Source of the DNA: Saccharothrix sp. S26
GTDB lineage: Bacteria > Actinomycetota > Actinomycetes > Mycobacteriales > Pseudonocardiaceae
Assembly: GCF_021390395.1 (NCBI RefSeq)
Contig: NZ_JAJUWT010000005.1
Coordinates: 186,001 to 250,000, forward strand
Direction: 5' to 3'
Length of the DNA: 64,000 nt
A program made the position numbers and the translations under genes. Of this stretch, positions 18,412-60,013 are shown one piece after another. Every line of letters begins with the position of its first letter. Positions within the stretch are counted from its first letter, which is position 1. The notes under the pieces were generated by a model, which was not told the origin of the DNA, made no database searches, and saw nothing but the letters and a program-made list of their open reading frames with translations.

Positions 18412-18966
18412 TCACACCCGCTCCGCTCGACGCGCGGTGGCGCCCAGCAGGTCGTGCCGGATCAGCCCGCTGCCCGCCCGCACCAGCAGCCAGTACGGCC
18501 GGAACGAGCGCCGCGCGGCGTCGTCGGTGCCGTGCACCCGGGTCTCGGTGGACAGCAGGGTGCCCGTGCCGTCGGCGTCGAGGCGGAAGTTCATCACGAC
18601 CTTCGACCAGCCGGGCTCGGTGAAGCCGGTGAACGCGTCCCGGTCGCCCCGCGGCAGATCCGGGCGCGCGGGCACCAGGGAGGTGTAGCGGGCGATGTCG
18701 GCGAGGACGACCTCACTCGGCGGGTCCTGGGCGACGGGCTTGGGTGCGAACGAGTCCAGCACGAGCGTCCCCGGCGGCGCTTGCACACCCCGCAGCCACG
18801 CGAGAGGGCCGCCGCGCAGGCGGAGCAACAGCATCGTCCAGCTCAGGTCGCAGACCCGGAGTGCGGTCAAGGCGGCCCAGACGCGCTCGGGCGGGGCGTC
18901 GACGTGGCGGGCGTGGTGCTCGCGGTGCTGCCACTCGGGCAGCAGGTCGTCGATCAGGGTGGTCAC
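18412..18966 (-). CDS. SRPBCC-fold (DUF2867-like) protein coupled to glutamate mutase genes
   Basis: Protein of 184 residues resembling SRPBCC/START-like helix-grip proteins that bind hydrophobic ligands. It opens with HREHHARHVDAPPERVWAAL, typical of the first strand and helix of the fold, followed by LDSFAPKPVAQDPPSEVVLADIARY and GWSKVVMNFRLDADGTGTLLSTETRVHG. The GTG start overlaps the stop of mutE by GTGA, so it is the last gene of the PKS/mutase operon. Its role is unknown; ligand binding, cyclisation or tailoring of the acyl chain are possible. No catalytic residue can be assigned. Confidence 0.65.
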   Translation of the reverse strand: MTTLIDDLLPEWQHREHHARHVDAPPERVWAALTALRVCDLSWTMLLLRLRGGPLAWLRGVQAPPGTLVLDSFAPKPVAQDPPSEVVLADIARYTSLVPARPDLPRGDRDAFTGFTEPGWSKVVMNFRLDADGTGTLLSTETRVHGTDDAARRSFRPYWLLVRAGSGLIRHDLLGATARRAERV

Positions 18967-20219
18967 GACAGCACCGCCGCGGGGGTGCCGTCGGTGAGGA
19001 CCGGGTGGTCGTAGCGCTGCTCGACGCGGTGCAGGTAGCCCAGCAGCGCGCCGCTGGTGACCGGCCGGAGGTCCTGGTCGGACCGCGCGATGGGCATGGA
19101 GCCCACCGCCGACCAGCGCAGCCGGCCGCTGCCGTCCACGTGCGCGCGGGACCGCCCGGCGTTGTCGGCGTGCAGGCAGTAGGGCACGTCCAGGACACCG
19201 GCGGAGAACGCGCGGACGAGTGCCTCCCCGACGTCCTCGTGCAGGTCGAGCACGGCGGCGATGAGCGTGCGCGCCTCGGCCTCGACACCGCTGTCCTCGA
19301 CCGCGGGCTCCTCGGGGCCGACCGTGCGGGCGACGGCGGCGGCGTGCTCCAGCGACGACACGTTCTCCGCGATGGTCGGGATGCGGTGCGCCTCGGCCGG
19401 GGTCTTCACGATCAGCCGGGCCGCTCCCCCGCGCACCGCGAGCCGCGCCGCGTCGGCCAGCAGCGCCAGCGAACCCGCCTCCGTGCGCGGGTGCACGCCC
19501 ATGTAGGCGTAGACCACGATGTGGTGGTCGACGTCGTGCAGCAGGTCCGCGGCGATGCGCCGCAACGCGTGCAGCGCCTCGGCGTCCTGCTCGGCGCTGG
19601 TCTGCTGGGTGAAGCTCAACGACAGGCTGGCGATGCCGCGCCGGCGGAAGAACAGCCCCTCCAGGATCGTCAGCGCGATCAGCAGGCTCGGCGGGCAGAG
19701 CTGGCCCAGCATGCAGCCGCCGAAGCTCTCCAGGTGCGGCTCGCCGGGCGCGGCGGCGAACGCCTCCACGGACCGCGACCACGCCGTGACCGACTCGCGC
19801 AGGGGCACCCGGCTGTAGGGCAGGCAGTACGACACCGGACCGCCCTCGGTGGCGTCCAGGCCGAGCGCGACGAGCGCGTCCACGATGTCGCCGGGCAGCG
19901 GCGAGCCGTGCCGGACCTGGACGGGGAAGCCGTGCCGGGCGGAGTCGGAGAGGACGTGCCGCGTGGTGGCGTCGTCGGTGGTGACGATCGGGTAGCCGTT
20001 GAGCGGTGTCCCCTCGGCGGCGGCTGCCAGCACGGCCGCGTAGTCGCCCACCCGGGTGTAGCTGTCGAGCGTGACCGTGCCGACGGTGGTGGCGTGCGCG
20101 CGGCGCGTGGCGACCAGGCCGGCGCGCATCAGGGCGGGGTCGCTGAAGCCCATGCGGGGCTGCACGACCAGGTGACCCGCGGCGTGCGCGGCGCGGACGA
20201 ACGTCGCGAACCCGGTCAC
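18963..20219 (-). CDS. mutE: Glutamate mutase (methylaspartate mutase) epsilon subunit
   Basis: Large subunit, 418 residues, of the B12-dependent mutase that converts L-glutamate to (2S,3S)-3-methylaspartate. Family blocks are visible: VVQPRMGFSDPALMRAG, TTDDATTRHVLS, HGSPLPGDIVDALVALG, ESFGGCMLGQLCPPSLLIAL, SLSFTQQTSAEQDAEAL and VYAYMGVHPRTEAG. It is coupled to the small subunit by a GTGA overlap. In friulimicin and skyllamycin producers the same gene pair supplies methyl-Asp for an NRPS. Here the last NRPS module has an Asp/Asn-type pocket, which fits. At 418 residues it is somewhat shorter than clostridial GlmE (about 480). Confidence 0.92.
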   Translation of the reverse strand: MTGFATFVRAAHAAGHLVVQPRMGFSDPALMRAGLVATRRAHATTVGTVTLDSYTRVGDYAAVLAAAAEGTPLNGYPIVTTDDATTRHVLSDSARHGFPVQVRHGSPLPGDIVDALVALGLDATEGGPVSYCLPYSRVPLRESVTAWSRSVEAFAAAPGEPHLESFGGCMLGQLCPPSLLIALTILEGLFFRRRGIASLSLSFTQQTSAEQDAEALHALRRIAADLLHDVDHHIVVYAYMGVHPRTEAGSLALLADAARLAVRGGAARLIVKTPAEAHRIPTIAENVSSLEHAAAVARTVGPEEPAVEDSGVEAEARTLIAAVLDLHEDVGEALVRAFSAGVLDVPYCLHADNAGRSRAHVDGSGRLRWSAVGSMPIARSDQDLRPVTSGALLGYLHRVEQRYDHPVLTDGTPAAVLS

Positions 20220-20671
20220 GGCGCAGCGCCTTCGAGCGAGCGCCGCTCGCGCGCGGTGGACACGAAGCGGTTGAACCCGGACAGGTCCGCGCCCTCCGCG
20301 AACACCGCGTCGAACCCGGCCTCCACGAGCTCGCCCGCCCGGTCGACGTCCGCCGCGCCCGCGATGCCGAGCTTGCCGCCGATCACGACCGGCAGCGTGC
20401 GCAGGGCGGGCTCGCGGCGCAGCTTCGTGATCAGCCGCTTGCCGTCGGCGTGGCCGTGACCGTTGACCGTGCTGATGACGAGCAGGTCCGGCCGGTCACT
20501 CAGGCACCGGGCGACGACGAGGTCGTCCGGTGTGCACGAGCCGAGGTTGGTCACGTCGTGGCCGTGTTCCTCCAGCAGCAGTTGCAGGAACACGAGGTTC
20601 CAGGTGTGCGAGTCGGAGGACACGGTGCACAGCAGCACGCGCCGTCCCTCGTCACGCAGGTGGTTGAGCAC
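20216..20671 (-). CDS. mutS: Glutamate mutase sigma (B12-binding) subunit
   Basis: Cobalamin-binding small subunit, 151 residues. The B12 motif normally DxHxxG appears as DSHTWN (Asp20, His22), so the axial His is kept but the usual Gly is Asn. The later motifs are present as LVISTVNGHG and VVIGGKLGIAG. The start is set at the GTG at 20671 because AGAGGAGG lies just upstream; a longer reading from 20731 has no support. It is followed by mutE with a GTGA overlap. Upstream is the carboxylase pseudogene, so mutSE is downstream in the long PKS operon. Confidence 0.9.
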   Translation of the reverse strand: MLNHLRDEGRRVLLCTVSSDSHTWNLVFLQLLLEEHGHDVTNLGSCTPDDLVVARCLSDRPDLLVISTVNGHGHADGKRLITKLRREPALRTLPVVIGGKLGIAGAADVDRAGELVEAGFDAVFAEGADLSGFNRFVSTARERRSLEGAAP

Positions 20672-20702: not shown

Positions 20703-21202
20703 CTACTGCGGGATCTTGTCGTGCGCGCCACGGCCCGTCGGCGCCGCTGTACGCGTCACCAACGTCACCCGCGGCACCACGGCCTCACCGAACGCGTCGC
20801 ACATCCGCACCAACCGCGCCGCCTTCTCCGCCGACAGCGAGTCCGGACACCCGCCCTTGCGGATCGGGACGTTCGCGGCCACGCCAACCAACGGCCCGAC
20901 GTCGTAGGCCCGCCGCGGCCGCTCCGGCAGCAACGCCCGCAGATCCTCGCCGTCGGGCACCGAGTGCAGGTCGAACACACCGGGCCGCGCGAACAGCCCG
21001 GTGATCCGCCGCGCCCGCCGGCAGGCGTCCGGCTCGTCGTCCGCGATCACGTGCACCGGAGTGCCAGACGCCGATCACGGGTGTGCGCTCACGCACCGCC
21101 GGACCCCAGGTCGAGCAGCTGCGCCAGCCGGGCCTCCGGGTCGCGCGGATCGGTGTCGACCGCCTCGGGAGCGGTGACAGGACGCTCCCGCAGCAGGGTC
21201 AC
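20703..21202 (-). pseudogene. Decayed acyl-CoA carboxylase carboxyltransferase (beta) subunit gene
   Basis: A relic of an AccB/PccB-type carboxyltransferase, which would make malonyl- or methylmalonyl-CoA with a biotin subunit. It starts at a GTG (21202) coupled to the isomerase stop, giving RLAQLLDLGSGG and then a stop at 21089. In another frame VREGT-like VRERTPVIGVWHSG follows. From about 21056 a third stretch reads HVIADDEPDACRRARRITGLF, LLPERPRRAYDV, VGVAANVPIRKGGC, SAEKAARLVRMCDAFG and VPRVTLVTRT. All match the order of the family, but about 1 kb is missing as several deletions and there are two frameshifts. Intact genes are about 1.5 kb. No function is expected. Confidence 0.82.
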
Positions 21203-21921
21203 CCGCAACCACCCGCCGTGTCGTGGTCGGCCCCGCCCACACGTTCCAGCACGGGCACGGGCACGTCGTCCAACGTCGTCGCCGCGGGCACGGGCAGTTC
21301 CTGCAACGTCGGCAGCAGCACGTCGAGGTAGGCGTCGAGCCGGTCCAAGCCCCAGAAGCGGTGCCGGCCGACCTTGAAGTAGGGGATGCCGAAGATGTCG
21401 TCGTGCCACGCCTGCACCAGCGCGTCGAGGCCCTCCTCGCGGATAGCCGGGTCGTCCACCGCGGATACCAGCGGCTCCGGGTCCAGCCCCGCCTGCTCCA
21501 AGGCCGCGCTCAGCACGTCGACCTCGCAGATGTCCTCGCCGCGCTCCCACCGCGCCCGGGTGACCGCGTCGTAGAACACGCGGTCCTGACCCAGGTGGCG
21601 GGCCTTGATCCAGGCGAGGTGCGGCAGCTCCCACCACGGGTCCACGTCGATGGGCCACGCCATGCGGTGACCGTGCTCGGCGACCAGGCGCTTGGTGTCC
21701 TGGAGGATGTAGAGGTGCTTCGCCTTGCTCATCTGGGTGTAGTGGAACCCGGCGTCGCGCTCCTCCAGGCCGGCCGCCGTGATCGGGTCCGGATCCCAGT
21801 AGGGCACGAACTCGATGATCTCCCGCGCCTGCGGGAGGCGTTCCTCCAAGCGCCGCAGGGCCAGCCAGCTGAACGGGCTGCGGAACGAGAAGTACAGGCG
21901 TGGCGGCTTCTTCACCCTCAT
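21199..21921 (-). CDS. DsbA-fold isomerase, 2-hydroxychromene-2-carboxylate isomerase-like
   Basis: Protein of 240 residues in the thioredoxin-fold HCCA isomerase/DsbA group. The family opening is RLYFSFRSPFSWLALRRL, where SPFS replaces the redox CxxC, as in the glutathione-using isomerases rather than disulfide oxidases. Other blocks are FVPYWDPDP, DVDPWWELPHLAWI and FGIPYFKVGRHRFWG. In cinnamoyl-lipid type II PKS clusters an isomerase is proposed to turn a polyene double bond to the cis form before ring closure; the same role is inferred here. Its ATG overlaps the stop of the double-hotdog gene by ATGA. Confidence 0.82.
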   Translation of the reverse strand: MRVKKPPRLYFSFRSPFSWLALRRLEERLPQAREIIEFVPYWDPDPITAAGLEERDAGFHYTQMSKAKHLYILQDTKRLVAEHGHRMAWPIDVDPWWELPHLAWIKARHLGQDRVFYDAVTRARWERGEDICEVDVLSAALEQAGLDPEPLVSAVDDPAIREEGLDALVQAWHDDIFGIPYFKVGRHRFWGLDRLDAYLDVLLPTLQELPVPAATTLDDVPVPVLERVGGADHDTAGGCG

Positions 21922-22862
21922 TCGGCACCCCCGAGCAGCGCGGCGCGGGTGTCGGCGTCGAACTCGGCCAGCGATCCGGACTTCTCGCCGCGGCTGACCG
22001 CGTAGCCGTGGACGATCGACGCGGTCGCGGTGTGCACGAGCACGTCGCCGCGGCGGACGTAGGTGTCCATGCGGGCCGTGTACATGACGTCCTTGATGAC
22101 CTCGCCGACGGTGAAGACGGTGTGCAGCGTCTCCTCCATGTGCGCGTCCGCGAGGAGCTGCACGCGGGCGCGGGACACGACGGGGATCCAGCCACGCTCC
22201 TCCAGCAGCTTGCCGATGCCCAGGCCGCGCTCGTGCAGGAACCGGTCCACGACCTCCTCCAACGCGCGGGTGTAGCCCGAGTGCTGGAGCCGGTGCGAGT
22301 AGTGGCAGTAGAAGTACGGGATGCGCCAGGACCACAGGAACGCGTTCGAGCCGGACGGGGTCAGCACCTCGGTGACCTCGCCCGGGCACGCGAGGTCGAC
22401 GCGCGCCTTGCTCTCCAGCTCCGCGACACCGCCGACGACGAACGGCACCAGTTCCACCGGTACCGGCTCGTGCCCCGGTGCGTCCCGCTCGGCCACCAGG
22501 GCGACGCGGACCTTGCCGGTCAGGATGGTGACCTGCGCGCCGTCGCGCCGCACGGTCAGGCGGACGGTGAAGGCCGCGCCGTGGCCGGGTTTCGCGGGCG
22601 CGGTGGTGACGACGGCGGTGACCTCGTCGTCCACCAGCAGGGTCGCGGGGAGCTGGATGGAGGTCTCCACGAACTCGATGCCCAGGCCGTGGACGTGGTA
22701 GAGCACGTCGGGGCCGGCGCCGCGGTCGCGGAAGTGCTGGAGCACGGCTTCCTCGAGCAGGTACGTGAAGTGCTTGAAGCCGATCCACGTGCGGATGTTC
22801 GCGCCCTCGTACCGGGGACGTCCCACGTACGTCGTGGGGCTCGCGTCGAGCGTGGTGGTCAT
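21918..22862 (-). CDS. Double-hotdog acyl thioesterase-like protein
   Basis: Protein of 314 residues with two hotdog halves. The first (about residues 15-150) has RTWIGFKHFTYLLEEAVLQHF and VETSIQLPATLLVDDEVTAVV; the second (about 190-305) has VSRARVQLLADAHMEETLHTVFTVG and RRGDVLVHTATASIVHGY. Hotdog proteins of this kind act on acyl-CoA or acyl-ACP, usually as thioesterases. In this operon it may edit or release polyene chains from the ACP or act as an extra dehydratase; sequence does not decide. Coupled by ATGA to the isomerase. Start at ATG 22862, with GAAGGAG 11 bases upstream. Confidence 0.72.
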   Translation of the reverse strand: MTTTLDASPTTYVGRPRYEGANIRTWIGFKHFTYLLEEAVLQHFRDRGAGPDVLYHVHGLGIEFVETSIQLPATLLVDDEVTAVVTTAPAKPGHGAAFTVRLTVRRDGAQVTILTGKVRVALVAERDAPGHEPVPVELVPFVVGGVAELESKARVDLACPGEVTEVLTPSGSNAFLWSWRIPYFYCHYSHRLQHSGYTRALEEVVDRFLHERGLGIGKLLEERGWIPVVSRARVQLLADAHMEETLHTVFTVGEVIKDVMYTARMDTYVRRGDVLVHTATASIVHGYAVSRGEKSGSLAEFDADTRAALLGGAE

Positions 22863-22937: not shown

Positions 22938-23777
22938 TCACCGGATCGGGTGCAGCGCGGTCAGGGGGGTGGCATTCGTCTCGAAGCCGACGCGGTCCAG
23001 GAACTCGCCCAGGTCGGCCGCCACGTCGTCGGCCTGCTCCACGTGGCAGAAGTGGGAGTAGTGGGGGCGGATGCGGAAGCGGGCGATCGGCAGGGCGGTG
23101 GCCAGGGCGGTGGCGCGTTCGCCGCTCAGCGCCTCGTCGTCCCGTCCCGCGACGACCAGGACCGGTATGTCCACATCGGACAGCCACAGGGTGGTGGAGG
23201 CCGCGAAGCTCTGGAAGAACGCGCCGAAGCCCACCGGGCCGATGCGGTCGACGACCGTGGCGGCCATCGCGGACAGCAGGTCGTCGTCCAGGTCCGCCGC
23301 GCGGGAACCCAGGCGCAGGCGCAGACCGGCGGTCATGATCCGGCGGACGCCGGCCAGGGCCGCCGTGTGCAGCGCCCAGTCCACCTCCAGCGCCGGGGGG
23401 CGGAAGAACGGGGCCACGAGCACCACCGCCTCGACGCTCGCGGGCAGCCCGCGTTCGGCGAGCAGGTGCAGCACGGCGTTCGCGCCGAACGAGTGGCCGA
23501 TCACCACCCGCGGCGCCTCGGGCACCAGGGCCAGGCCCCGGCTCAGCCAGTCGGCGGGTGTGCCGCGGTGGCACCAGGTGTCGGTGCTGCCCGCGCGCCA
23601 CGGCAGGTCCAGCGCGTAGCACGCGCGGTCGCCGAGTTCGGCCGCCAGCGGCAGCCAGCCCGCCCAGCCGTCCTGGAGGCCGTGCGCGAGCACGACGGGC
23701 GGGCCCGTGCCGGAACGGCCCCACAGCACGGCGGCGTCCCCGCGGGCGACGACCCGCCACCTCTCGCGCTCGCCCAC
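22938..23777 (-). CDS. Alpha/beta-hydrolase
   Basis: Alpha/beta-hydrolase fold protein, 279 residues. The oxyanion region reads VVLAHGLQDGWAGW, the nucleophile elbow is GHSFGA, the acid residue is in LVVAGRDDEAL, and the catalytic His is likely in RPHYSHFCHVEQADD. It follows the short KS-like gene by only two bases and belongs to the PKS operon. It could hydrolyse aberrant acyl-ACP (a type II thioesterase role) or act on the final product. The motif and size do not show which. Confidence 0.8.
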   Translation of the reverse strand: MGERERWRVVARGDAAVLWGRSGTGPPVVLAHGLQDGWAGWLPLAAELGDRACYALDLPWRAGSTDTWCHRGTPADWLSRGLALVPEAPRVVIGHSFGANAVLHLLAERGLPASVEAVVLVAPFFRPPALEVDWALHTAALAGVRRIMTAGLRLRLGSRAADLDDDLLSAMAATVVDRIGPVGFGAFFQSFAASTTLWLSDVDIPVLVVAGRDDEALSGERATALATALPIARFRIRPHYSHFCHVEQADDVAADLGEFLDRVGFETNATPLTALHPIR

Positions 23778-23779: not shown

Positions 23780-24625
23780 TCAGATCCCCCGCACGCTCAG
23801 GTGGACGGCCGCGTGGCCGTCCGCCGGGCCGCCGCACACGACGCCGGCGCCCGCACCCGGCTGCCCGCCGGCCCGCAGCCACGCGGCGGCCAGCGCGACC
23901 TGGAGCACGCCGCGCGCGCCGGACGTGGGCCCGACGTGGTCGTCGATCTCGGCGGTGTCGAGCAGCAGGTCGTCCACGTGCTCGGACCGGTGCACCCGAC
24001 CCAGCAGCACGCCCGCGCGCCCCGGTTCCGAACGTTCGAGCACGACGCACGCCGCGAGCGCGCGCAACGGGCCCGCGATGGACGTGGCGGTGTCGTCGTC
24101 GGGTTCGACGCCGACCACGACGACCCGGTCCGCGCGCCCGGCGCGCAACGCCAGCGCGCCCAGGCCGACCGCGTCCAGACCGGACGTCTCACCCGAGCAC
24201 ACCGTCAGGTTGGGCCCGGTGAAGCCCCAGCGGATGGCGATGGTGCTGGCCACGACGTTGCTGGAGGCGTTGGGGCTGTTGAGCGGGCTCACGTCGCGGC
24301 CGGAGCCCGCGCGTTCCTCGCGCACGACGTCGGCGACCGTGGCGACGTTGCCGTAGTTGGAGCTGACGACCACGGCCGTGCGGTCCGCTCCCGGTAGCGG
24401 GAGGGTCGGCTTGCCCTCGGGCAGCCCGAGCGCGCGGTGCACGGCGCACAGCGCGAGCCGGGTGGACGGCTCCTTGTAGAGCAGGCCCTTGCGCCCCAGC
24501 AGGAGGTGCGCCTGGTCCGGTCCGACGGCCGGTCCGGCCGCCAGCAGCGCGAGCAGGGGATCCTCCGGCGAACCGGGACCGGGCAGGTGCACCGCCTGGG
24601 CGGTCACCAGCACCCCGGCGGTCAC
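23780..24625 (-). CDS. Short ketosynthase-like protein with Glu at the nucleophile position (second CLF-like subunit)
   Basis: Ketosynthase-fold protein of only 281 residues, against about 370-420 for its neighbours. The region that normally reads GPNLTVSTACASG is FTGPNLTVCSGETSG, so the aligned nucleophile is Glu146; a Cys lies three residues earlier. The C-terminal HGTGT and GHT motifs are absent. It is coupled by GTGA to the intact KS upstream, so a KS/CLF-like heterodimer is the likely arrangement. Two KS/CLF pairs are known from cinnamoyl-lipid PKS clusters. Catalytic activity of its own is not expected. Confidence 0.75.
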   Translation of the reverse strand: MTAGVLVTAQAVHLPGPGSPEDPLLALLAAGPAVGPDQAHLLLGRKGLLYKEPSTRLALCAVHRALGLPEGKPTLPLPGADRTAVVVSSNYGNVATVADVVREERAGSGRDVSPLNSPNASSNVVASTIAIRWGFTGPNLTVCSGETSGLDAVGLGALALRAGRADRVVVVGVEPDDDTATSIAGPLRALAACVVLERSEPGRAGVLLGRVHRSEHVDDLLLDTAEIDDHVGPTSGARGVLQVALAAAWLRAGGQPGAGAGVVCGGPADGHAAVHLSVRGI

Positions 24626-25737
24626 GGGTTCACCTCGATCACGCACACCGCGTTCACGCCGCCGAAGCCGAACGCGTCGACCTGCACGACCGCGTGCCCG
24701 CTGATCGGCGCGGGCTCGTCCACGACCAGGCGCAGGCCGGCGGCCTCGTCGATCGCGGTCCGCAGCCCCGCGTTCGGCGGGACCCACCCGGCGCGCACCG
24801 ACTCGACGGCGAGCACCAGGCTGGTCAGCGCCGCCGCGCCGGAGGTGTGGCCGATGGCGCCCTTCACGCCGGTGACGAGCGGCTGCTCGGCGACGTCGGC
24901 GAACACCTCGGACAAGGCGGAGGCCTCGGTCGGGTCGTTCAGGGCGGTGCCGGTGCCGTGGGCGAGCACGAGGTCCACCTCGTCGGGGGTGATCCCGGCG
25001 CGTTCGTGGGCGTCGCGCATCGCCGCCACGATGCCGCGCACGTCCGGCGCGGTCTCGTGGTGGGCGTCGCAGGACAGGCCGACACCGAGCACCAGGGGCC
25101 CGTCGCCGCGGGGCTGGACCACGACCGCCGCCGCGCCCTCGCCGAGCAGGACGCCGGTGCGGTCCCGGTCGAACGGGCGCACGGAGGTCGTGGGCTCCTC
25201 GCCGACGCGGCCGATCATCGTCAGCATGCTCTCGGTGGTGGCGTCGCAGCCCGCGACGACGACCGCGTCCGCCTCGTCGGCGGCGAGCAGGTCGGCGGCG
25301 ATGGCCAGCGCGTGCCCGGAGGCCGAGCACGCGTTGGACACCGTGATCACGTCCGCGACTCCGGGCAGCGCGGCCCGCACCGCCGCCGCGAAGTGCAGCT
25401 CCTCGGGGAGCACCGGGACACCGTCTGCGGTGAACCGCTCCACCGACCGCAGCTCCCGCAGACCGGTGCCGACGATCGCCGTGACCCGCTGGGTCGTGGC
25501 GTCGAGCCCGGCCTGCGCCGCGGCGGCGGCCACGCACTCGGTGAGCCAGCCGGCGGCGCGGCGCGGGCGTTCCACGTCGCCGTCGTCGATCTGGTAGCCG
25601 TGGGTGACGTTGAGCTTGGCGGTGTCGTGGAAGCGCAGGGGCGACACCCCGCTGACGCCCTCGACGAGCGCCTTGAACGTCGTCGTCGTGTCGCCCAGGC
25701 AGGTGCGGATCTCGGCCCCGGTGATGACGCTAGGCAC
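24622..25737 (-). CDS. Ketosynthase (second KS of the type II PKS)
   Basis: Beta-ketoacyl-ACP synthase of 371 residues with a complete active site: Cys137 in VSNACSASGHA, His260 in LAHGTGTALND, Lys292 in VKGAIGHTSGA and His297. It should catalyse Claisen condensation with malonyl-ACP. It starts at a GTG that overlaps the CLF stop by 8 bp and is coupled to the truncated KS-like gene downstream. Its sequence is clearly different from the first KS, pointing to a distinct chain-length window or step. The exact division of labour is not readable. Confidence 0.9.
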   Translation of the reverse strand: MPSVITGAEIRTCLGDTTTTFKALVEGVSGVSPLRFHDTAKLNVTHGYQIDDGDVERPRRAAGWLTECVAAAAAQAGLDATTQRVTAIVGTGLRELRSVERFTADGVPVLPEELHFAAAVRAALPGVADVITVSNACSASGHALAIAADLLAADEADAVVVAGCDATTESMLTMIGRVGEEPTTSVRPFDRDRTGVLLGEGAAAVVVQPRGDGPLVLGVGLSCDAHHETAPDVRGIVAAMRDAHERAGITPDEVDLVLAHGTGTALNDPTEASALSEVFADVAEQPLVTGVKGAIGHTSGAAALTSLVLAVESVRAGWVPPNAGLRTAIDEAAGLRLVVDEPAPISGHAVVQVDAFGFGGVNAVCVIEVNP

Positions 25738-26839
25738 GGGCGTACCCCCGGATCACGGCCGCGCCGACCGCGCCGTCGGCCGAGACCGACGTGACGACGC
25801 CGACCCGCCCGTCCAACGCCTTGTCGCCGCGGTGGTGCGCGAGCAGCGCGGACACCTGGAGCGCACCGGAGGCCGCGTGGCACTCCCCGGTCAGCTCCTT
25901 GACGCGCACGCGTCGCGGGCCCGTGCCCAACGACAGCGCGACGCCCAGGGACTCCAGCCGGTCCAGCCGGTCGTCCCCCGTCTCGCCGGTCGCGACGGCC
26001 CACACGTCGTCCACGTGGACGCCGGCCCGTTCCAGGGCCCGGCCCACGCAGCCGGCGAGGCCGTCCGCGGTGTCGCCGGTCGGGCTGGAGCCGATCTCCA
26101 CGGACAGCACCTCCGCGTCGACCGCGCGCCCGGCGGACCGCGCCACGTCGGGGTTCTCCGCGACGAACACCGCGGATCCCTCCCCCAGCGGGACGTGCGC
26201 GCCGATCCGCTCGTGCACGTTGTGCGTGCCCCAGGCGGTGTGCGGGCTGAACTCCTCGACCGCGCCGACCAGGGCGCCGTCGACGTAGCCCCGGCGGACC
26301 GCGTTGCGGGTGTAGCGCAGCGCGTTGAGGCCGGCGAGCTGGCCGCCCGCCACGGTCGCGTTGACGCCCTTGAGCTTGTGCCAGATCGCGGCCTGCCCCG
26401 CGGCGCAGTTCATCACGGTGTTGGGGAACAGCACCGGGTTCACCAGGTACGGCTTGTCCTGCACGAGGGTCTCGCGGCTGTAGTCGCTGGTGGACTTGAA
26501 GCTGCCCGCGGTGGTGCCCAGGACGATGCCCAGCCGGTCGCGGTTGGTGTCGTCCACGACCAGGCCGGTGTCGGCCAGCGCGAGGTGGCAGCCGACGAGG
26601 GCCAGCGCCGTGCTGCGGTCGAGGAACGCTGTTCCCTTGCGCCCCACGTAGTCCCGGGCGTGGAAGCCGACCAGCGCGCACGCCTTGGACTCGGGCAGCT
26701 CGTCGTCGAACGCGCCCTCGACGTCGACCAGGCCGCCCCGGCCCTCGCGGACCGCGGCGCTGAAGTCGTCGGCGCCGATGCCCGTGGAGGTCAGCACTCC
26801 CCAGCCGGTGATGGCCAGCGTGTCCGGTGCGGTGCTCAT
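25730..26839 (-). CDS. Chain length factor (KS-beta)
   Basis: KS-like protein of 369 residues in which the nucleophile is Gln167 (VNATVAGGQLAGLNAL), the hallmark of chain length factors of type II polyketide synthases. The usual His motifs are replaced (AVATGETGDD in place of HGTGT). CLFs pair with the KS and set chain length. The ATG overlaps the KS stop by ATGA, as expected for a heterodimer made in equal amounts. Confidence 0.93.
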   Translation of the reverse strand: MSTAPDTLAITGWGVLTSTGIGADDFSAAVREGRGGLVDVEGAFDDELPESKACALVGFHARDYVGRKGTAFLDRSTALALVGCHLALADTGLVVDDTNRDRLGIVLGTTAGSFKSTSDYSRETLVQDKPYLVNPVLFPNTVMNCAAGQAAIWHKLKGVNATVAGGQLAGLNALRYTRNAVRRGYVDGALVGAVEEFSPHTAWGTHNVHERIGAHVPLGEGSAVFVAENPDVARSAGRAVDAEVLSVEIGSSPTGDTADGLAGCVGRALERAGVHVDDVWAVATGETGDDRLDRLESLGVALSLGTGPRRVRVKELTGECHAASGALQVSALLAHHRGDKALDGRVGVVTSVSADGAVGAAVIRGYARA

Positions 26840-30243: not shown

Positions 30244-30458
30244 TCACGCGCCGGATTCGGCCATCGCCGCGACGAGGCTCTTGGGCCGCATGTCGGTCCA
30301 GTTCTCCTCGACGTGGCGCAGGCAGGCCTCGCGGCTGTCCGGGCCCAGGGTGGTGGTCCAGCCGTCGGGGACCCGGGCGAACGCGGGCCACAGGGAGTGC
30401 TGGCCCTCGTCGTTGACCAGCACGAGGTAGCTCAGGTCGTCGTTCTCGAAGGGGTTCG

Positions 30459-30462
<4 letters not shown>
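30244..30462 (-). CDS. MbtH-like protein (canonical)
   Basis: MbtH-family partner of NRPS adenylation domains, 72 residues. The family signature is complete: [23 protein letters not shown], then the L-x6-WTD-x-RP block [14 protein letters not shown]. Such proteins bind A domains and are often needed for their folding or activity. The GTG start overlaps the stop of the large NRPS gene by GTGA, so it is made together with it. Confidence 0.96.
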
Positions 30463-54322
<23,860 letters not shown>

Positions 54323-54627: not shown

Positions 54628-55587
54628 GTGGAACCAGCGATCCGAGCCGAAGGGCTCTACAAGAGGTACGGCGACCACGAGGCGCTGCGCGGCGTCGACG
54701 TGACGGTCCCGGCGGGCGAGGTGTTCGGTGTCCTCGGCCCCAACGGGGCGGGCAAGACCACGACCGTGCGCATCCTGTCGACGTTGCTGGTGCCCGACGG
54801 CGGCCAGGCGTTCGTCTCGGGGCACGACGTGGTGCGCGACCCGCGCGCGGTGCGCCGGGCGATCGGCCTCGCGGGCCAGTACGCGGCCGTGGACGAGAAG
54901 CTGACCGGCCGGGAGAACCTGCGGCTGATCGGCACCCTGTACCGGATGGGCAGGCGCACCGCGAAGGCCCGCGCCGACGAGCTGCTGGAGCGCTTCTCCT
55001 TGCGGGACGCGGCGAACCGCGTCGTGAAGACCTACTCCGGCGGGATGCGCCGTCGGCTGGACCTGGCGGTGAGCATCATCGCCGAACCCGCGGTGATGTT
55101 CCTCGACGAGCCGACCACCGGCCTGGACCTGACCAGCCGGCTCGCGCTGTGGGAGATGATCCGCGAGCAGGTGGCCCGCGGCGCGACCGTGCTGCTGACC
55201 ACGCAGTACCTGGAGGAGGCCGACCAGCTCGCCGACCGGATCGCGGTCATCGACGGCGGCCGGGTCATCGCCGAGGGCACCCCCGACGAGCTGAAGGCCA
55301 AGGTCGGCGGCGAACAGCTGGAGGTCACCGTCGCGCACCACCGCGACGTCCCCGCCGTCACCGCGCTGCTGGGCCGGCTGGTCGTCGCCCCGCCGACCAC
55401 CTCCGCCGACGGGCTGACCGTCTCGGTCCCGCTGCACGACGGCTTCGGAGGTGTCGCCGACGCCGCGGCGGCGTTGCGCCCGCTCGGCGCGGCCGTCACC
55501 GACTTCGGCACCCGCCGACCGTCGCTGGACGACGTCTTCCTCGCGCTGACCGGCACGACGGCGACCCCTGAGAGGACGACCCCATGA
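54628..55587 (+). CDS. ABC exporter ATP-binding protein (DrrA-like)
   Basis: Nucleotide-binding subunit of 319 residues in the drug-resistance (DrrA) group. Walker A is GPNGAGKTTT, the signature is YSGGMRRRLDLA, Walker B is PAVMFLDEPTTGLD, and the His switch region has VLLTTQYLEEADQLADR. The C-terminal tail (about 95 residues, ending RRPSLDDVFLALTG) is the usual DrrA extension. GTG at 54628 has GAGGAG six bases upstream. It overlaps the permease by ATGA. Export of, and self-resistance to, the lipopeptide is inferred from position. Confidence 0.94.
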   Translation: MEPAIRAEGLYKRYGDHEALRGVDVTVPAGEVFGVLGPNGAGKTTTVRILSTLLVPDGGQAFVSGHDVVRDPRAVRRAIGLAGQYAAVDEKLTGRENLRLIGTLYRMGRRTAKARADELLERFSLRDAANRVVKTYSGGMRRRLDLAVSIIAEPAVMFLDEPTTGLDLTSRLALWEMIREQVARGATVLLTTQYLEEADQLADRIAVIDGGRVIAEGTPDELKAKVGGEQLEVTVAHHRDVPAVTALLGRLVVAPPTTSADGLTVSVPLHDGFGGVADAAAALRPLGAAVTDFGTRRPSLDDVFLALTGTTATPERTTP

Positions 55588-56420
55588 CCACGATCACCAG
55601 CACGCCCCTGGTCCCCGTCGCCCCGCCCGCCCTGGCCGGTGCCGCGAGCGACACGGCCGCCCTGTTCGCGCGGCACGTGCGCCACATCGCGCGCACACCG
55701 GAGAAGCTGCTCGGCGTCACGCTGATGCCGGTCGCCTACGTGGTGATCTTCGGCGTGCTGTTCGGCGCGGCGATCGCACTGCCCGGCGGCAGCTCGTACG
55801 GCGAGTACCTCATGGCCGGCATCTTCACCCAGACCATGCTGTCCACGGTGTCCAGCACGGCGCTGGGCGTCGCGGACGACCTGGGCAACGGGCTGGTCGA
55901 CCGCTTCCGCTCGTTGCCGATGTCGCAGGGCGCGGTGCTCCTGGCGCGGACGGCGTCGAACCTGGTGCTGTCGCTGGTGTCCATCACGGTCATGGCGCTG
56001 GTCGGCCTGCTGATCGGCTGGCGGGTGTCGGCGGGTGCGGCGGCGGCGCTGGGCGCGGTGGGGCTGCTGCTGCTGTTCGGGTTCGCGATGTCGTGGCTGG
56101 GCGCGTTGATCGGCCTGGTGGTGCGCGGCGCGGAGGCGATCAGCGCGGTGGCGTTCCTGATCGTGATGCCCTTGACGTTCCTGTCCAACGCGTTCATCCC
56201 GCTGAACGGCCTGCCGGCGTGGCTGCGCGCGGTGTGCGAGTGGAACCCGATCAGCTCGGTCGTGGCAGCGTGCCGCGAGTTGTTCGGCAACCCGGCGCCT
56301 GCGGGCGACTCGTTCCCGGCGGCGCACCCGATCCCGATGGCCGTCGCGTTGACGCTGGCCGTGCTGCTGGTCACCGCACCGCTCGCGGTGCGCGCCTACC
56401 GCTCGGCGGTGGCCCGATGA
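55584..56420 (+). CDS. ABC-2-type exporter permease (DrrB-like)
   Basis: Membrane subunit, 278 residues, with six hydrophobic segments and the ABC-2 features VTLMPVAYVVIFGVLFG, GEYLMAGIFTQTMLS and VAFLIVMPLTFLSNAFIPLNGLPAWL. It pairs with the coupled ATP-binding protein to form a DrrAB exporter, probably carrying the peptide product. The N-terminal cytoplasmic stretch contains ALFARHVRHIARTPEKL, a family-typical coupling region. Confidence 0.93.
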   Translation: MTTITSTPLVPVAPPALAGAASDTAALFARHVRHIARTPEKLLGVTLMPVAYVVIFGVLFGAAIALPGGSSYGEYLMAGIFTQTMLSTVSSTALGVADDLGNGLVDRFRSLPMSQGAVLLARTASNLVLSLVSITVMALVGLLIGWRVSAGAAAALGAVGLLLLFGFAMSWLGALIGLVVRGAEAISAVAFLIVMPLTFLSNAFIPLNGLPAWLRAVCEWNPISSVVAACRELFGNPAPAGDSFPAAHPIPMAVALTLAVLLVTAPLAVRAYRSAVAR

Positions 56421-56448: not shown

Positions 56449-57741
56449 ATGGTCGAGCTGAGGCTGGGTCGCGCGCCGGCTGCGCCGCCGTCGTCGCCGT
56501 TGGCGGCGGTCGCGGCGGCGGGCGCGCAGTGGCTGGCCGAGGACGACCCGCGACTGCACGCCCTGCTGGTCGCCGAGCACGGTGAGCGCGAGGAGAACCT
56601 CGTGCTGCGCGCGCCCGGCCCGGCGCCGGACCCGACCGCGACGGCGTGCGGCGCCGTGCTGCCCGCCGACCCGGTGTCCGGTGTGGACGGTGGCCCGGTC
56701 GAGCGGCTGGCCCTGGAGCGGGCGCGGTCGGTGTTCGGCGCCGAGTACGCCGACGTGCGACCGAACTCGGGCGCCGAGGCGCGTTCGCTGGTGCTGGACG
56801 CGGTGCTGGGCCCGGACGAGGTCGTGCTGGACGCGCGACTGGGCACCCGACCCCGCGACGGGCGCGCGCACCGGACCGTGGAGCACCTCCTCGCCGTCGG
56901 CGAGGGGTTCGACCACGACGGCCTGGCCGCCCGCGCGGCGCGGGAGCGGCCGGCGGTGCTGCTGTGCGGCGGCGAGCCGCACCCGCTCACCCCGGACTTC
57001 GCCCGGCTGCGCGCGATCGCCGACGGTGTGGGCGCGCTGCTGGTCGTCGACATCTCCCACGTCGCGGGGCTCGCGGCCACCGGCCTGCTGCCCAGCTCCG
57101 TCGACCACGCCCACGTGACCACGCTCGACGTGGCGACCGGCCTGCCCGGTGCGCGCGGCGGCGTGGTGCTGTGCGGGCGTGACGCGCGGACGCCCGTGCG
57201 CGGCACGCCGCTGGCGGACCTGCTCGCGGCCCGCACCTCCCGGGAGCGGCGGGGCACGCCCGACCTGGCCGTCCTGGCGGGCACGGCGCGGGCGCTGGAC
57301 GTGGTCCGCGGTGACGACTTCCGCGAGGAGGTCCTGCGCACCGCGCTGGGCGCGGCGGAACTGGCCGCGGAGTTCGCGCTGCTCGGCCACCGCGTCGTCA
57401 CCGGCGGCACGGACAACCACGTGGTGTTCGTCGAGCTGCCGGCCGACGTGGGCCCGTACGCGGTGGACGTCCTGCGCGAGGTCAACCTCGTGGTCGACCG
57501 GGTGCCGGGACCGGATCCGGTCATCGCGCTGGACGTGACCTCCGCCGGTCGGCGCGGGTTCGACCGCAGCGAGATGAGGCACGTCGCGCAACTGGCCGAC
57601 GAAGCGCTCAAGGGCGCGCGGACCGGGGACCGGCTCGACCGCTTCACCCGGCTGTCCGTCCGCGACGAGGTGCTGCGCCTGCTCTGGCAGTTCCCCCTGC
57701 CCCGGCACGTCCCGACGACCCGATGGAGGACCCACCCGTGA
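56449..57741 (+). CDS. Serine hydroxymethyltransferase-like protein lacking the PLP lysine
   Basis: Protein of 430 residues clearly related to SHMT: VRPNSGAEARSLVLDAVL aligns with the ANVQPHSGSQAN block, VDISHVAGLAATGLLPS aligns with DMAHVAGLIAAG, and GARGGVVLC with the GPRGG block. Between them the family has TTTTHKTLRGPRGG with the PLP-binding Lys; here the stretch is VTTLDVATGLPGARGG, with Thr230 at the Lys position and Ala for the preceding His. Other substrate-loop residues are also lost. Normal SHMT chemistry is therefore unlikely. It is the gene before sbnA, whose GTG overlaps its stop. A scaffold, a binding protein or an altered activity are all possible. Confidence 0.8.
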   Translation: MVELRLGRAPAAPPSSPLAAVAAAGAQWLAEDDPRLHALLVAEHGEREENLVLRAPGPAPDPTATACGAVLPADPVSGVDGGPVERLALERARSVFGAEYADVRPNSGAEARSLVLDAVLGPDEVVLDARLGTRPRDGRAHRTVEHLLAVGEGFDHDGLAARAARERPAVLLCGGEPHPLTPDFARLRAIADGVGALLVVDISHVAGLAATGLLPSSVDHAHVTTLDVATGLPGARGGVVLCGRDARTPVRGTPLADLLAARTSRERRGTPDLAVLAGTARALDVVRGDDFREEVLRTALGAAELAAEFALLGHRVVTGGTDNHVVFVELPADVGPYAVDVLREVNLVVDRVPGPDPVIALDVTSAGRRGFDRSEMRHVAQLADEALKGARTGDRLDRFTRLSVRDEVLRLLWQFPLPRHVPTTRWRTHP

Positions 57742-58724
57742 GCGGACCGGACCTGCTGCGCCGGCTGGAGGCGATCCGGCGGTCGATGCCGGAGACGCCG
57801 GTGGTCAAGCTGGCCGACGACACCGTCGACCTGCACGCGAAGCTGGAGTTCAGCAACCCCAACGGCAGCTCGAAGGACCGCTCGGCGCTGTGGATCCTCA
57901 AACGCGCCGTCGAGCGGGGCGACGTGACCGAGGGCTCCACGATCGTGGAGTCGTCCTCGGGCAACTTCGCCATCTCCCTCGCCTCCTTCTGCCGCTCGCT
58001 GGGGGTGGACTTCATCCCGGTGCTCGACCCGAACGTGAACGCCTCCACCGAGGCGTACCTGCGGCAGGTGTGCCGGCGGGTGGAGAAGGTCACCGAGCGC
58101 GACGCCAGCGGCGGCTTCCTGAGCACCCGGTTGGCGCGCGTGCAGCAGCTACGCGGCGAGCTGCCCGACGTGTACTGGCCCAACCAGTACGCCAACACCG
58201 ACGCCGTGCTCGCGCACTACCGGCTCACCGGTGGCGAGATCTGCCGCGCGTTCCGGTCGGTCGACCACGTCTTCGTCGGCACGAGCACGGGTGGCACGAT
58301 CGCCGGGCTGTCCCGACGGGTCAAGGAGACGTGGCCGCACGTCCGCGTCGTCGGCGTGGACGCGGAGGGGTCGGCGATCTTCGGCGGCGCGCCGCGCACC
58401 CGGCACATCCCCGGCCTGGGCTCCTCGATCACCCCGCCGCTGTTCGACCACGCGCTGATCGACGACGTCGTGATCGTGCCCGAGCGCGACACCGTGCGCG
58501 GCTGCCACGAGTTGCTGCGGCGGCACGGGCTGTACGCGGGCGGGTCGACCGGGACGGTGTACGCCGCGATCAACCGCTACTTCGCCGACCACACCGGGCC
58601 GCGGCCCACGGTGCTGTTCCTGTGCGCCGACCGCGGCACCGGCTACGCCGACACGATCTACAACCCCCGCTGGGTCGCGGAGGTCTTCGCGGAGCAACCC
58701 GCCGCCGACATGGTGCCCGCCTAA
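57738..58724 (+). CDS. sbnA: SbnA-like N-(2-amino-2-carboxyethyl)-L-glutamate synthase
   Basis: PLP-dependent cysteine-synthase-fold enzyme, 328 residues. By homology to SbnA it joins O-phospho-L-serine and L-glutamate, the first step to L-2,3-diaminopropionate. The PLP Lys is in FSNPNGSSKDRSALWIL, the substrate loop is ESSSGNFAISLASF, and the phosphate loop is GTSTGGTIAGLSR. The GTG at 57738 overlaps the upstream stop by GTGA and has GGAGGA seven bases before it; ATG 57723 is an alternative. With sbnB next, the pair is the standard diaminopropionate route. Confidence 0.92.
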   Translation: MSGPDLLRRLEAIRRSMPETPVVKLADDTVDLHAKLEFSNPNGSSKDRSALWILKRAVERGDVTEGSTIVESSSGNFAISLASFCRSLGVDFIPVLDPNVNASTEAYLRQVCRRVEKVTERDASGGFLSTRLARVQQLRGELPDVYWPNQYANTDAVLAHYRLTGGEICRAFRSVDHVFVGTSTGGTIAGLSRRVKETWPHVRVVGVDAEGSAIFGGAPRTRHIPGLGSSITPPLFDHALIDDVVIVPERDTVRGCHELLRRHGLYAGGSTGTVYAAINRYFADHTGPRPTVLFLCADRGTGYADTIYNPRWVAEVFAEQPAADMVPA

Positions 58725-58806
58725 CGCCACGACGCCTTACCTCGACCTCGGTCCGCCACCGGGCGGGACCGGCCCGTCCCCACCCCTACACACGAAACGG
58801 GACCAC

Positions 58807-59826
58807 ATGCCCGACATCCCACTGCCGTCGCTGCGGATCGTCACCGCCGAAGAGGTCTCCAAGCAGGTCGACGCCGACCGGGAAGGCGTGCTGACCGCGG
58901 TCCGCGACGCCTACCTCGCCCACGACGCGGGCACGACCTCCAATCCGCACAGCAGCTTCCTGCGCTTCCCCGACCGACCACGCGACCGGATCATCGCGCT
59001 GCCCGCCTACCTGGGCGGGCCGCGCGAGGTCGCCGGCATCAAGTGGATCGCGAGCTTCCCCGCCAACACCGCGGTCGGCAAACCGCGGGCTTCGGCCGCG
59101 CTGATCCTCAACGACCTGTCCGACGGCTACCCCTACGCGATCATGGAGTCGTCCATCATCTCCGCCACGCGCACCGCCGCGTCCGCCGTGCTGGGCGCGG
59201 AAGCGCTCGTGGGCGGACGGCGCGCGGGCCGGATCGGCTGGATCGGCACCGGGTTGATCGCCGAACACGTCCGCCGGTTCTTCCGCGACCTGGGTTGGGA
59301 GGTCGGCGGCCACCGGCTGTTCGACCTCGACCCGGCCGCGGCGCGGCGCTTCGGCGCGGCGCTGGAGTCCGACGGCGCGCCGGACGTTGTGGTCGCCGAC
59401 GCGGCCGCGGGCGCGTTCGACGGGTGTGACGTCGTGGTGATCACGACCGTCGCCGGCGAGCCCCACCTGCACGACCCGGCGCTGCTCGCGGGCGCGCCGG
59501 TCGTGCTGCACCTGTCGTTGCGCGACCTGGCCCCGGAGCTGGTGCTGGCGTCGTTCAACGTGACCGACGACGTGGACCACGCGGTCCGCGAGCGCACGTC
59601 GCTGCACCTGGCCGAGCAGCTCACCGGTGGGCGGGACTTCGTCGCCGGGACCATCGGCGACGTGCTGCGCGGGCGCGTCACGCGCGACCCCGGGCGGGCG
59701 GCGGTGTTCTCGCCGTTCGGCTTGGGGGTGTTGGACCTCGCCGTGGGTTCCTGGGTGCACGACCGGGTGGTCGACCAGGGCGGCGGGCAGATGGTGCCGG
59801 ACTTCTTCACGGGAGCGGTGGGCTGA
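58807..59826 (+). CDS. sbnB: SbnB-like dehydrogenase forming 2,3-diaminopropionate
   Basis: NAD-dependent enzyme, 339 residues, of the ornithine cyclodeaminase/mu-crystallin family. SbnB oxidatively cleaves the SbnA product to 2-oxoglutarate and L-2,3-diaminopropionate. Features: SNPHSSFLRFPDRPRDR, the substrate-binding IKWIASFPANTAVGKPRASA, and the dinucleotide motif RIGWIGTGLIAEHV. It is 82 bp after sbnA. Together with an NRPS module that has an acidic A-domain pocket, it suggests a diaminopropionate residue in the peptide. Confidence 0.92.
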   Translation: MPDIPLPSLRIVTAEEVSKQVDADREGVLTAVRDAYLAHDAGTTSNPHSSFLRFPDRPRDRIIALPAYLGGPREVAGIKWIASFPANTAVGKPRASAALILNDLSDGYPYAIMESSIISATRTAASAVLGAEALVGGRRAGRIGWIGTGLIAEHVRRFFRDLGWEVGGHRLFDLDPAAARRFGAALESDGAPDVVVADAAAGAFDGCDVVVITTVAGEPHLHDPALLAGAPVVLHLSLRDLAPELVLASFNVTDDVDHAVRERTSLHLAEQLTGGRDFVAGTIGDVLRGRVTRDPGRAAVFSPFGLGVLDLAVGSWVHDRVVDQGGGQMVPDFFTGAVG

Positions 59827-59827
59827 C

Positions 59828-60013
59828 ATGGACGAGGTCAAGGTGGTCGTCAACGACCTGGGGCAGTACTCGACGTGGCCGGTGCGCCGGCCCAACCCGC
59901 TGGGGTGGCACGACTGCGGTGTGGCCGGCACCCGCGAGGAGTGCCTGGAGCACATCTCGCGGGTGTGGACGGACCTGGCGCCGCTCCCGGCGGGCCTGCG
60001 CGTGCAGGACTGA
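59828..60013 (+). CDS. Short, divergent MbtH-like protein
   Basis: Sixty-one residues, shorter at the N-terminus than the usual 65-72. It keeps VVVNDLGQYSTWP, PLGW and RVWTDLAPLPAGL, matching the N-x-E/L-x-Q-x-S-x-W-P, P-x-G-W and WTD blocks of MbtH proteins, but the glutamate of NDEGQ is Leu and the RP after WTD is AP. It is the last gene of the exporter/diaminopropionate unit. Two different MbtH genes in one cluster suggest division of labour between A domains, or a specialised or degenerate copy. Confidence 0.82.
   Translation: MDEVKVVVNDLGQYSTWPVRRPNPLGWHDCGVAGTREECLEHISRVWTDLAPLPAGLRVQD

What the first reader, a model, noticed from the sequence alone, without database searches (positions are those of the whole stretch)
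18412..60013. Hybrid cluster: highly reducing type II PKS feeding a hexamodular NRPS with methyl-Asp and diaminopropionate supply
One region combines a polyene-type II PKS (KR, two DHs, ACP, two KS/CLF-like pairs, no ER), a starter-C NRPS of six modules, glutamate mutase, and SbnA/SbnB. The skyllamycin-type logic (type II PKS acyl group plus methyl-Asp) is known; the combination with diaminopropionate and a Ser-Val hexapeptide is not one I can match to a named product. Predicted scaffold: polyenoyl or cyclised acyl - D-X - D-Ser - D-hydrophobic - Val - Dap? - MeAsp?, released or cyclised by the TE.
Basis: partly seen in the sequence, partly recalled or inferred. Interest (0 to 1): 0.85.

Follow-up and report, generated by a model that had tools for sequence, protein, structure and literature searches.

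The report
Coprisamide-type cinnamoyl peptide gene cluster
This stretch of an actinomycete genome carries genes for a cyclic six-residue peptide capped with an alkenyl-cinnamoyl group, and it closely resembles the known coprisamide family, so the cluster is real but belongs to a natural product that already has a name.

Summary
A cluster of about 43 kb (17.8-61.1 kb) holds a highly reducing type II PKS (two KS/CLF pairs, KR, two DH, ACP), glutamate mutase E/S, SbnA/SbnB, MbtH, an ABC exporter and a two-protein, six-module NRPS: C-A-PCP-E, C-A-PCP-E / C-A-PCP-E, C-A-PCP, C-A-PCP, C-A-PCP-TE. The claim that it matches no named product does not hold. MeAsp, Dap, D-Ser, D-Leu, Val and an alkenyl-cinnamoyl cap is the reported make-up of coprisamide C (table in PMC13192320; MIBiG BGC0002378 per PMC12837462). 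Streptomyces rugosispiralis, whose cluster antiSMASH scores 95% to coprisamide C/D (PMC10525797), has the same six-module order and the same A-domain codes bar one residue. The core set recurs in a same-genus relative and in Prauserella, Actinokineospora and Rhodococcus. The acyl group is most likely alkenyl-cinnamoyl, because the cis-trans isomerase gene is present. Residue 1 is not settled. What remains odd is an SHMT-like gene that lacks the PLP lysine: it is kept in the window's and two relatives' clusters and missing from the other six examined. New member of a known kind.

The parts
17783..18253 (-). DUF3995 protein, probable left edge of the cluster
   Evidence: PF13160 3.8e-22; homologue beside or inside the related clusters of G002 (83%), Prauserella, Actinokineospora, S. 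rugosispiralis, SCUT-3, Micromonospora and Actinoplanes; no match in the Rhodococcus stretch
18412..18966 (-). SRPBCC/cyclase-like protein, unknown role
   Evidence: Only a weak Polyketide_cyc2 hit, 0.015; next to mutE in G002, Prauserella, S. rugosispiralis, Actinokineospora, Rhodococcus and SCUT-3
18963..20219 (-). glutamate mutase E subunit (3-methyl-Asp supply)
   Evidence: PF06368 8.7e-81; TIGR01503 153.8 bits, below that model's cut-off of 390
20216..20671 (-). glutamate mutase S (B12-binding) subunit
   Evidence: PF02310 1.9e-11; methylaspartate mutase S 6e-14, below cut-off
20703..21056 (-). short stretch like an acyl-CoA carboxyltransferase, probably a gene remnant
   Evidence: PF01039 1.1e-05 over 37 residues; a longer homologous stretch at the same place in G002 (PF01039 4.7e-51)
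21199..21921 (-). DsbA-like polyene cis-trans isomerase (role by analogy)
   Evidence: PF01323 2.9e-16; of 80 kept relatives, 76 have a KS1 match within the locus
21918..22862 (-). 4HBT hotdog-type protein, unknown role
   Evidence: PF13279 8.8e-07; in 68 of 80 isomerase loci
22938..23777 (-). alpha/beta hydrolase, possible type II thioesterase
   Evidence: PF12697 9.8e-16; in 69 of 80 isomerase loci
23780..24625 (-). chain length factor 2 (Glu in place of active Cys)
   Evidence: PF00109 1.3e-14; alignment
24622..25737 (-). ketosynthase 2
   Evidence: PF02801 6.4e-28; Cys/His/His kept
25730..26797 (-). chain length factor 1 (Gln in place of active Cys)
   Evidence: PF00109 9.4e-14
26836..28044 (-). 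ketosynthase 1
   Evidence: PF00109 2.3e-38; Cys/His/His kept
28047..28313 (-). acyl carrier protein
   Evidence: PF00550 1e-13
28383..28877 (-). dehydratase subunit (FabA-like)
   Evidence: PF07977 6.3e-07
28874..29287 (-). dehydratase subunit (FabA-like)
   Evidence: PF07977 1.2e-08
29318..30058 (-). ketoreductase (FabG-like SDR)
   Evidence: PF13561 5.4e-68, PF00106 5.8e-60, PF08659 KR 1.6e-25
30244..30462 (-). MbtH-like protein
   Evidence: PF03621 2e-28
30459..45233 (-). NRPS2: C-A3-PCP-E, C-A4-PCP, C-A5-PCP, C-A6-PCP-TE; codes DALLVGAVA (Leu-like), DAYWWGGTF (Val), DIWEMTADD (diamino acid, Dap), DLTKLGMVN (Asp type, MeAsp)
   Evidence: substrate names by recalled codes
45230..54322 (-). 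NRPS1: starter C-A1-PCP-E, C-A2-PCP-E; codes DVFSVAIVY (not assigned), DVWHISLVD (Ser)
54628..55587 (+). ABC exporter ATPase (DrrA type)
   Evidence: TIGR01188 360.9 bits, above cut-off 312
55584..56420 (+). ABC exporter permease (DrrB type)
   Evidence: PF01061 4.1e-29
56449..57741 (+). SHMT-fold protein without the PLP lysine
   Evidence: PF00464 5.3e-36; Thr at the Lys site
57738..58724 (+). SbnA (diaminopropionate biosynthesis)
   Evidence: TIGR03945 397.6 bits, above cut-off 350
58807..59826 (+). SbnB (diaminopropionate biosynthesis)
   Evidence: TIGR03944 385.2 bits, above cut-off 327
59828..60013 (+). second MbtH-like protein
   Evidence: PF03621 2.3e-17
60135..61091 (-). LuxR-type regulator, probable right edge
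   Evidence: PF00196 2.8e-05; homologue next to the cluster in G002, Prauserella, Actinokineospora and Rhodococcus

Best explanation
It is a coprisamide-type cinnamoyl-containing nonribosomal peptide (CCNP) cluster. The iterative PKS (KS1/CLF1, KS2/CLF2, KR, DH pair, ACP) builds a polyene. The DsbA-like isomerase sets one cis double bond so that the chain can close by 6pi-electrocyclisation to an ortho-alkenyl cinnamoyl group. The starter C domain of NRPS1 passes this acyl group to residue 1. Six modules then add residue 1 (D), D-Ser, D-Leu-like, L-Val, Dap and MeAsp, and the TE closes the ring, probably through the D-Ser oxygen, leaving residue 1 outside the ring. MutES makes 3-methyl-Asp from Glu, SbnA/SbnB make Dap, and the ABC pair exports the product. 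Shown by sequence: genes, domain order, active-site residues, codes, conserved gene set. Inferred: the chemistry of each step, ring closure and the identity of residue 1.
For: Domain order and active sites. C2-C4 start LPLS(P/S)LQ(E/K)G (DCL type by recalled motif) after the three E modules; C5 and C6 start (I/V)P(M/L)S..QRRLWFL (LCL type). Make-up of coprisamide C: D-Ser, D-Leu, Val, Dap and beta-MeAsp in the ring, one Val outside, 2-alkenyl-cinnamoyl cap (PMC13192320 table and footnote); two reviews class it as a cyclic depsipeptide, which fits closure through Ser. S. rugosispiralis RCU-064 cluster 1 is 95% 'coprisamide C/D' by antiSMASH (PMC10525797); in that genome the best isomerase hit (66%) lies beside the PKS, MutES, SbnAB and a two-gene NRPS with the same order of domains, 57% and 63% identical to ours. 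Codes: A1 identical in 9 of 9 clusters, A6 in 8 of 8; S. rugosispiralis differs from the window only by Ile to Leu in A2.
Against: The two coprisamide papers (Um 2015; Shin 2021) are not held, and I compared with no coprisamide cluster sequence directly. The link is one antiSMASH line, and antiSMASH similarity counts genes with hits, not sequence identity (recalled). The A1 code DVFSVAIVY is not a Val code that I recall, and module 1 has an intact E domain, while the table writes the exocyclic Val as L. A review calls coprisamides cyclic heptapeptides (PMC4778507), against six modules here. Streptomyces clusters have SbnA/SbnB only about 40/47% identical to ours, placed differently, and no cluster SHMT. 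No aromatising oxidase was seen in the scans of the cluster genes.
Confidence: 0.9

Rival explanations
1. A new scaffold: the same precursors are assembled into a peptide that is not coprisamide-like.
For: The A1 code is unassigned; this cluster carries an extra SHMT-like gene; the S. rugosispiralis synthetases are only 57-63% identical.
Against: Codes at all six positions are the same or nearly so in clusters from several genera, including the one reported as coprisamide-like; the order of A and C/E domains is identical in 6 of 6 relatives with a complete, unbroken NRPS pair.
Confidence: 0.06
2. The acyl cap stays a linear polyene (ishigamide or colabomycin type) and never becomes cinnamoyl.
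For: No aromatising oxidoreductase was seen in the scans. PMC9321520 also reports no ring-closing homologue in the epoxinnamide cluster, whose product does have the ring.
Against: An isomerase is present in the sky and cal clusters but was not observed in the other type II PKSs compared in PMC6510318, and YsfG of youssoufene is called a glutathione-dependent cis-trans isomerase (PMC9381841). Of 80 isomerase loci, 62 also hold 4HBT, hydrolase and KS1 matches. That our DsbA-like protein is the same kind of isomerase is inferred; I compared it with no named isomerase.
Confidence: 0.06
3. A calcium-dependent acidic lipopeptide (friulimicin or malacidin type) that shares MeAsp and diamino acids.
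For: MeAsp supply and a diamino-acid module are shared features (recalled).
Against: Only one Asp-type A domain out of six, so no Asp-X-Asp-Gly motif (recalled hallmark), and no Gly code that I recognise; the acyl group comes from a type II PKS.
Confidence: 0.01

Closest known systems
Coprisamides (coprisamide C/D, MIBiG BGC0002378)
   Same: MeAsp, Dap, D-Ser, D-Leu, Val and 2-alkenyl-cinnamoyl (PMC13192320); six-module order and codes by way of the S. rugosispiralis cluster
   Different: Different host group; SbnAB of another lineage than in the Streptomyces clusters; extra lysine-less SHMT gene; exact acyl chain unknown
Skyllamycin and other CCNPs (WS9326A, kitacinnamycin, epoxinnamide)
   Same: Same kind of PKS with isomerase (PMC6510318), two KS/CLF pairs as described for epoxinnamide (PMC9321520); TE closest in the PDB to 7crn/7dxo, 'Non-ribosomal peptide synthetase 4', which I recall as the skyllamycin TE and whose numbering (W96, S97, L98, D124, Q125) fits that paper
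   Different: Shorter peptide, Dap, no P450 seen; Ser where Gln125 of Skyxy-TE sits, so epimerising cyclisation is not expected
Youssoufene / globisporamic acid cinnamoyl compounds
   Same: Isomerase-dependent polyene elongation by several KS/CLF pairs (PMC9381841, passages)
   Different: Products are cinnamoyl lipids or acids, not hexapeptides, and those clusters have three KS/CLF pairs

Membership tests
Cinnamoyl-containing nonribosomal peptide (CCNP) clusters | Type II PKS with KS, KR, DH, ACP and isomerase next to NRPS genes (criterion of PMC6510318) | tested here: met
   the isomerase assignment is by family and context, not by comparison with Sky27
Cinnamoyl-containing nonribosomal peptide (CCNP) clusters | Ortho-alkenyl cinnamoyl cap on the product | not testable with these tools
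   needs the compound
Coprisamide clusters | Supply genes for both beta-methyl-Asp and 2,3-diaminopropionate | tested here: met
   MutE and MutS score below NCBIfam cut-offs, SbnA and SbnB above
Coprisamide clusters | Six-module NRPS with D-Ser, D-Leu, Val, Dap, MeAsp at modules 2-6 | tested here: met
   codes and E domains; substrate names rest on recalled codes and on the supply genes
Coprisamide clusters | Module 1 loads the exocyclic Val | tested here: inconclusive
   code DVFSVAIVY unassigned, E domain present; same code in S. rugosispiralis
Coprisamide clusters | Close match to BGC0002378 itself | not testable with these tools
   sequence not held; proxy is S. rugosispiralis, 95% by antiSMASH
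Bifunctional (epimerising) CCNP thioesterase | Gln or Glu at the position of Skyxy-TE Gln125 | tested here: not met
   Ser in the window; Ser or Ala in the 7 of 8 relatives of this type that gave a TE (Actinoplanes is cut)

The most novel reading that the evidence does not exclude
The Pseudonocardiaceae-type coprisamide clusters use a lysine-less SHMT pseudoenzyme as a working part, for example a serine- or PLP-binding partner of the Dap enzymes or of a Ser/Dap adenylation domain. It would belong to a wider family of NRPS-associated SHMT pseudoenzymes, and the product would be a coprisamide congener not yet isolated.
Probability: 0.15. Interest if true: 0.5.

Novelty: new member of a known kind. 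Interest (0 to 1): 0.27.

Why it matters
It shows that the coprisamide assembly line occurs well beyond the two producers named in PMC9321520 (Streptomyces SNU533 and Micromonospora UTJ3), with binding-pocket codes nearly fixed, so the hexapeptide is probably under selection (inference). It gives a set of related clusters for testing chain length and ring closure. It also turns a claim of a new scaffold into a known family.

Tried and rejected
Tried: direct look-up of the two coprisamide papers (not held). A first automatic code reader picked wrong residues in some domains; I replaced it with alignment-based codes. A search for SHMT pseudoenzymes with nonribosomal peptides found no paper (all three terms required, open-licence library only). 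A search for cinnamoyl with methyl-Asp, Dap and type II PKS (three of four terms) gave one review, not opened. 'Saccharothrix' with 'coprisamide' gave one review, not opened. (ring closure, youssoufene) led only to PMC6510318, PMC9321520 and PMC9381841, of which I saw passages or parts of sections. PMC12915310 holds coprisamide only in its reference list.

Rejected: friulimicin/malacidin type (one Asp-type module of six); epimerising TE (Ser at the Gln125 site); an active SHMT or alpha-methylserine synthase in this cluster (the Lys is Thr).

Limits: the Micromonospora and Actinoplanes stretches as fetched show no KR, DH, ACP or MutES, and the Actinoplanes NRPS2 is cut at the fetched edge. SCUT-3 NRPS2 reads as broken frames and no A4 was found there. 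Loci have at most 10 kb of flank, so its co-occurrence counts are low estimates; one search kept 80 of 119 relatives and finds only what its two peptide patterns reach. In relatives, E domains were placed by position and not by motif, and PCPs were not sought in G002 and G089. Substrate codes, Stachelhaus positions and C-domain type motifs are recalled rules, not tool output. The host genus is inferred: G023, same genus as the window, has a contig of 141134 bases with the match at the same place as Saccharothrix obliqua NZ_JAHXGQ010000014.1.
Full report
WHAT IS THERE. Gene calls by codon-position GC and family scans give one compact cluster. The synthetic genes lie on the minus strand from 17.8 to 54.3 kb, the exporter and Dap genes on the plus strand from 54.6 to 60.0 kb, and a LuxR-type regulator follows on the minus strand to 61.1 kb. 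The PKS part has KS1/CLF1 and KS2/CLF2; an alignment of the four shows Cys, His, His in both KS and Gln or Glu in place of the Cys in both CLFs. There are one KR (FabG-like; its best Pfam model carries an enoyl-reductase description but is a general SDR model), two FabA-like DH, one ACP and no separate ER. The NRPS pair carries six A and six PCP domains, nine C/E domains and one TE.

MODULES. Order: C-A1-PCP-E, C-A2-PCP-E on NRPS1; C-A3-PCP-E, C-A4-PCP, C-A5-PCP, C-A6-PCP-TE on NRPS2. All three E domains keep HHxxxDG. The C domains that follow E modules look like DCL and the last two like LCL (motif rule recalled). Nine-residue codes: A1 DVFSVAIVY, A2 DVWHISLVD (Ser), A3 DALLVGAVA (Leu-like), A4 DAYWWGGTF (Val), A5 DIWEMTADD (acidic pocket for a diamino acid), A6 DLTKLGMVN (Asp type); substrate names are recalled. 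With MutE/MutS and SbnA/SbnB in the cluster, A6 is best read as MeAsp and A5 as Dap.

MATCH TO COPRISAMIDES. A 2016 review says coprisamides are cyclic heptapeptides with beta-methyl-Asp, Dap and a 2-heptatrienyl cinnamoyl chain (PMC4778507, passages). A 2026 review table gives coprisamide C as a cinnamoyl cap, a ring of D-Ser, D-Leu, Val, Dap and beta-methyl-Asp, and one Val outside it (PMC13192320, passages). Coprisamide C is MIBiG BGC0002378 (PMC12837462, passages). The Streptomyces rugosispiralis genome paper lists its cluster 1 as 95% similar to coprisamide C/D (PMC10525797, one table passage). In that genome the isomerase has three matches; the best (66%) lies on contig 1, beside the PKS, MutES and SbnAB genes and a two-gene NRPS with the same domain order, 57% and 63% identical to ours. 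That this is the paper's cluster 1 is my inference from contig number and gene content.

SPREAD. The isomerase profile found 119 relatives in the collection of one genome per species, and 80 were kept. Of these 80 loci, 76 have a KS1 match, 68 a 4HBT match and 69 a hydrolase match. Within at most 10 kb of flank, MutE occurs in 11 of 80 and SbnA-like genes in 11 of 80, both in 5 of 80; the SbnA-like count includes weak matches near 40% identity. I fetched wide neighbourhoods of 13 relatives. Complete six-module pairs were seen in 6 of 8; SCUT-3 NRPS2 is broken as read, and Actinoplanes is cut by the fetched edge. MutES was seen in 6 of 8 (not in the Micromonospora and Actinoplanes stretches). 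The A1 code is identical in 9 of 9 clusters including the window, and A6 in 8 of 8; A2-A5 differ only by conservative changes. G002 matches the window at 60-92% per protein in the same gene order, apart from a 53% carboxyltransferase stretch, and also carries the SRPBCC-like (75%) and DUF3995 (83%) genes past mutE. The other five fetched relatives (G023, G081, G171, G161, G027) share the PKS block but show no MutES, no SbnAB and only low partial matches to the NRPS pair.

HOW IT PROBABLY WORKS. Published work on related systems assigns an isomerase to the cis bond that allows 6pi ring closure (PMC6510318, passages; PMC9321520, two of three parts of one section; PMC9381841, passages, which calls YsfG a glutathione-dependent cis-trans isomerase). 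Two KS/CLF pairs probably divide early and late elongation, as proposed for epoxinnamide. The TE resembles PDB 7crn/7dxo, recalled as skyllamycin TE, but has Ser at the site (Gln125) that PMC9321520 ties to epimerisation; the 7 of 8 relatives of this type that gave a TE have Ser or Ala there. So ring closure without epimerisation of MeAsp is expected.

AGAINST. Residue 1 is not settled: its code is not a Val code I know, and its E domain conflicts with the L-Val written in the review table. Coprisamides are called heptapeptides in one review, against six modules. I had no coprisamide sequence or original paper. The Streptomyces SbnA is only about 40% identical to ours, though its S. scopuliridis relative passes the SbnA model cut-off, so the Dap genes were probably exchanged at some point. 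MutE and MutS score below NCBIfam cut-offs. No enzyme for aromatisation was identified.

THE ODD GENE. The SHMT-like protein (430 aa) has Thr where SHMTs have the PLP lysine; orthologues in G002 and G089 have Thr and Arg. A search of 298 related genomes at 1e-41 or better gave 20 places in 18 genomes. Of these, 15 of 20 keep Lys, and 14 of those 15 have NRPS matches within the short locus; 5 of 20 lack it: the window, G002, G089, L173 (Gln) and L169 (residue depends on the alignment). A copy from Actinoplanes fetched separately (L175) has Arg. L173 and L175 sit beside a similar small MbtH gene, and both genomes carry a Lys-bearing copy about 40 kb away on the same contig (L158, L176). In the tree the window group and the L173/L175 pair are split from the rest, while L169 groups with Lys-bearing copies; L159 (G089) is a long branch. 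In the six other relatives of this type, no SHMT match at 1e-20 lies in the cluster: matches are on other contigs, or more than 0.5 Mb away in SCUT-3. Pairwise dN/dS with G002 is 0.49, close to the hydrolase gene (0.50), against 0.21-0.41 for the other seven genes tested. It looks constrained, but less than most of its neighbours, so a decaying relic is not excluded. Function not shown.

VERDICT. A coprisamide-type cluster with the expected parts in place; known chemistry in a new host; low to moderate interest.

Noticed in passing
56449-57741 (+); L156, L159, L173, L175: SHMT-fold protein without the PLP lysine (Thr, Thr, Arg, Gln, Arg), kept in three coprisamide-type clusters and found in two other loci beside a short MbtH gene.
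   Followed up: partly
20703-21056 (-): Short stretch like an acyl-CoA carboxyltransferase between mutS and the isomerase, probably a remnant; a longer homologous stretch lies at the same place in G002.
   Followed up: partly
57738-59826 (+) against L056-L060: SbnA/SbnB of the Streptomyces coprisamide-type clusters are only about 39-49% identical to the window's and, in S. rugosispiralis and SCUT-3, lie between PKS and NRPS: the Dap genes seem to have been replaced while the Dap module code stayed.
   Followed up: partly
L105, L131: Two Rhodococcus loci carry the PKS block with glutamate mutase; Rhodococcus sp. 1168 has the full six-module pair with SbnAB and nearly the same codes.
   Followed up: partly
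10309-16246 (+): Glutamate synthase large and small subunit genes (gltB/gltD type) lie just left of the cluster; probably housekeeping, though they make the mutase's substrate.
   Followed up: no
   Followed up: partly
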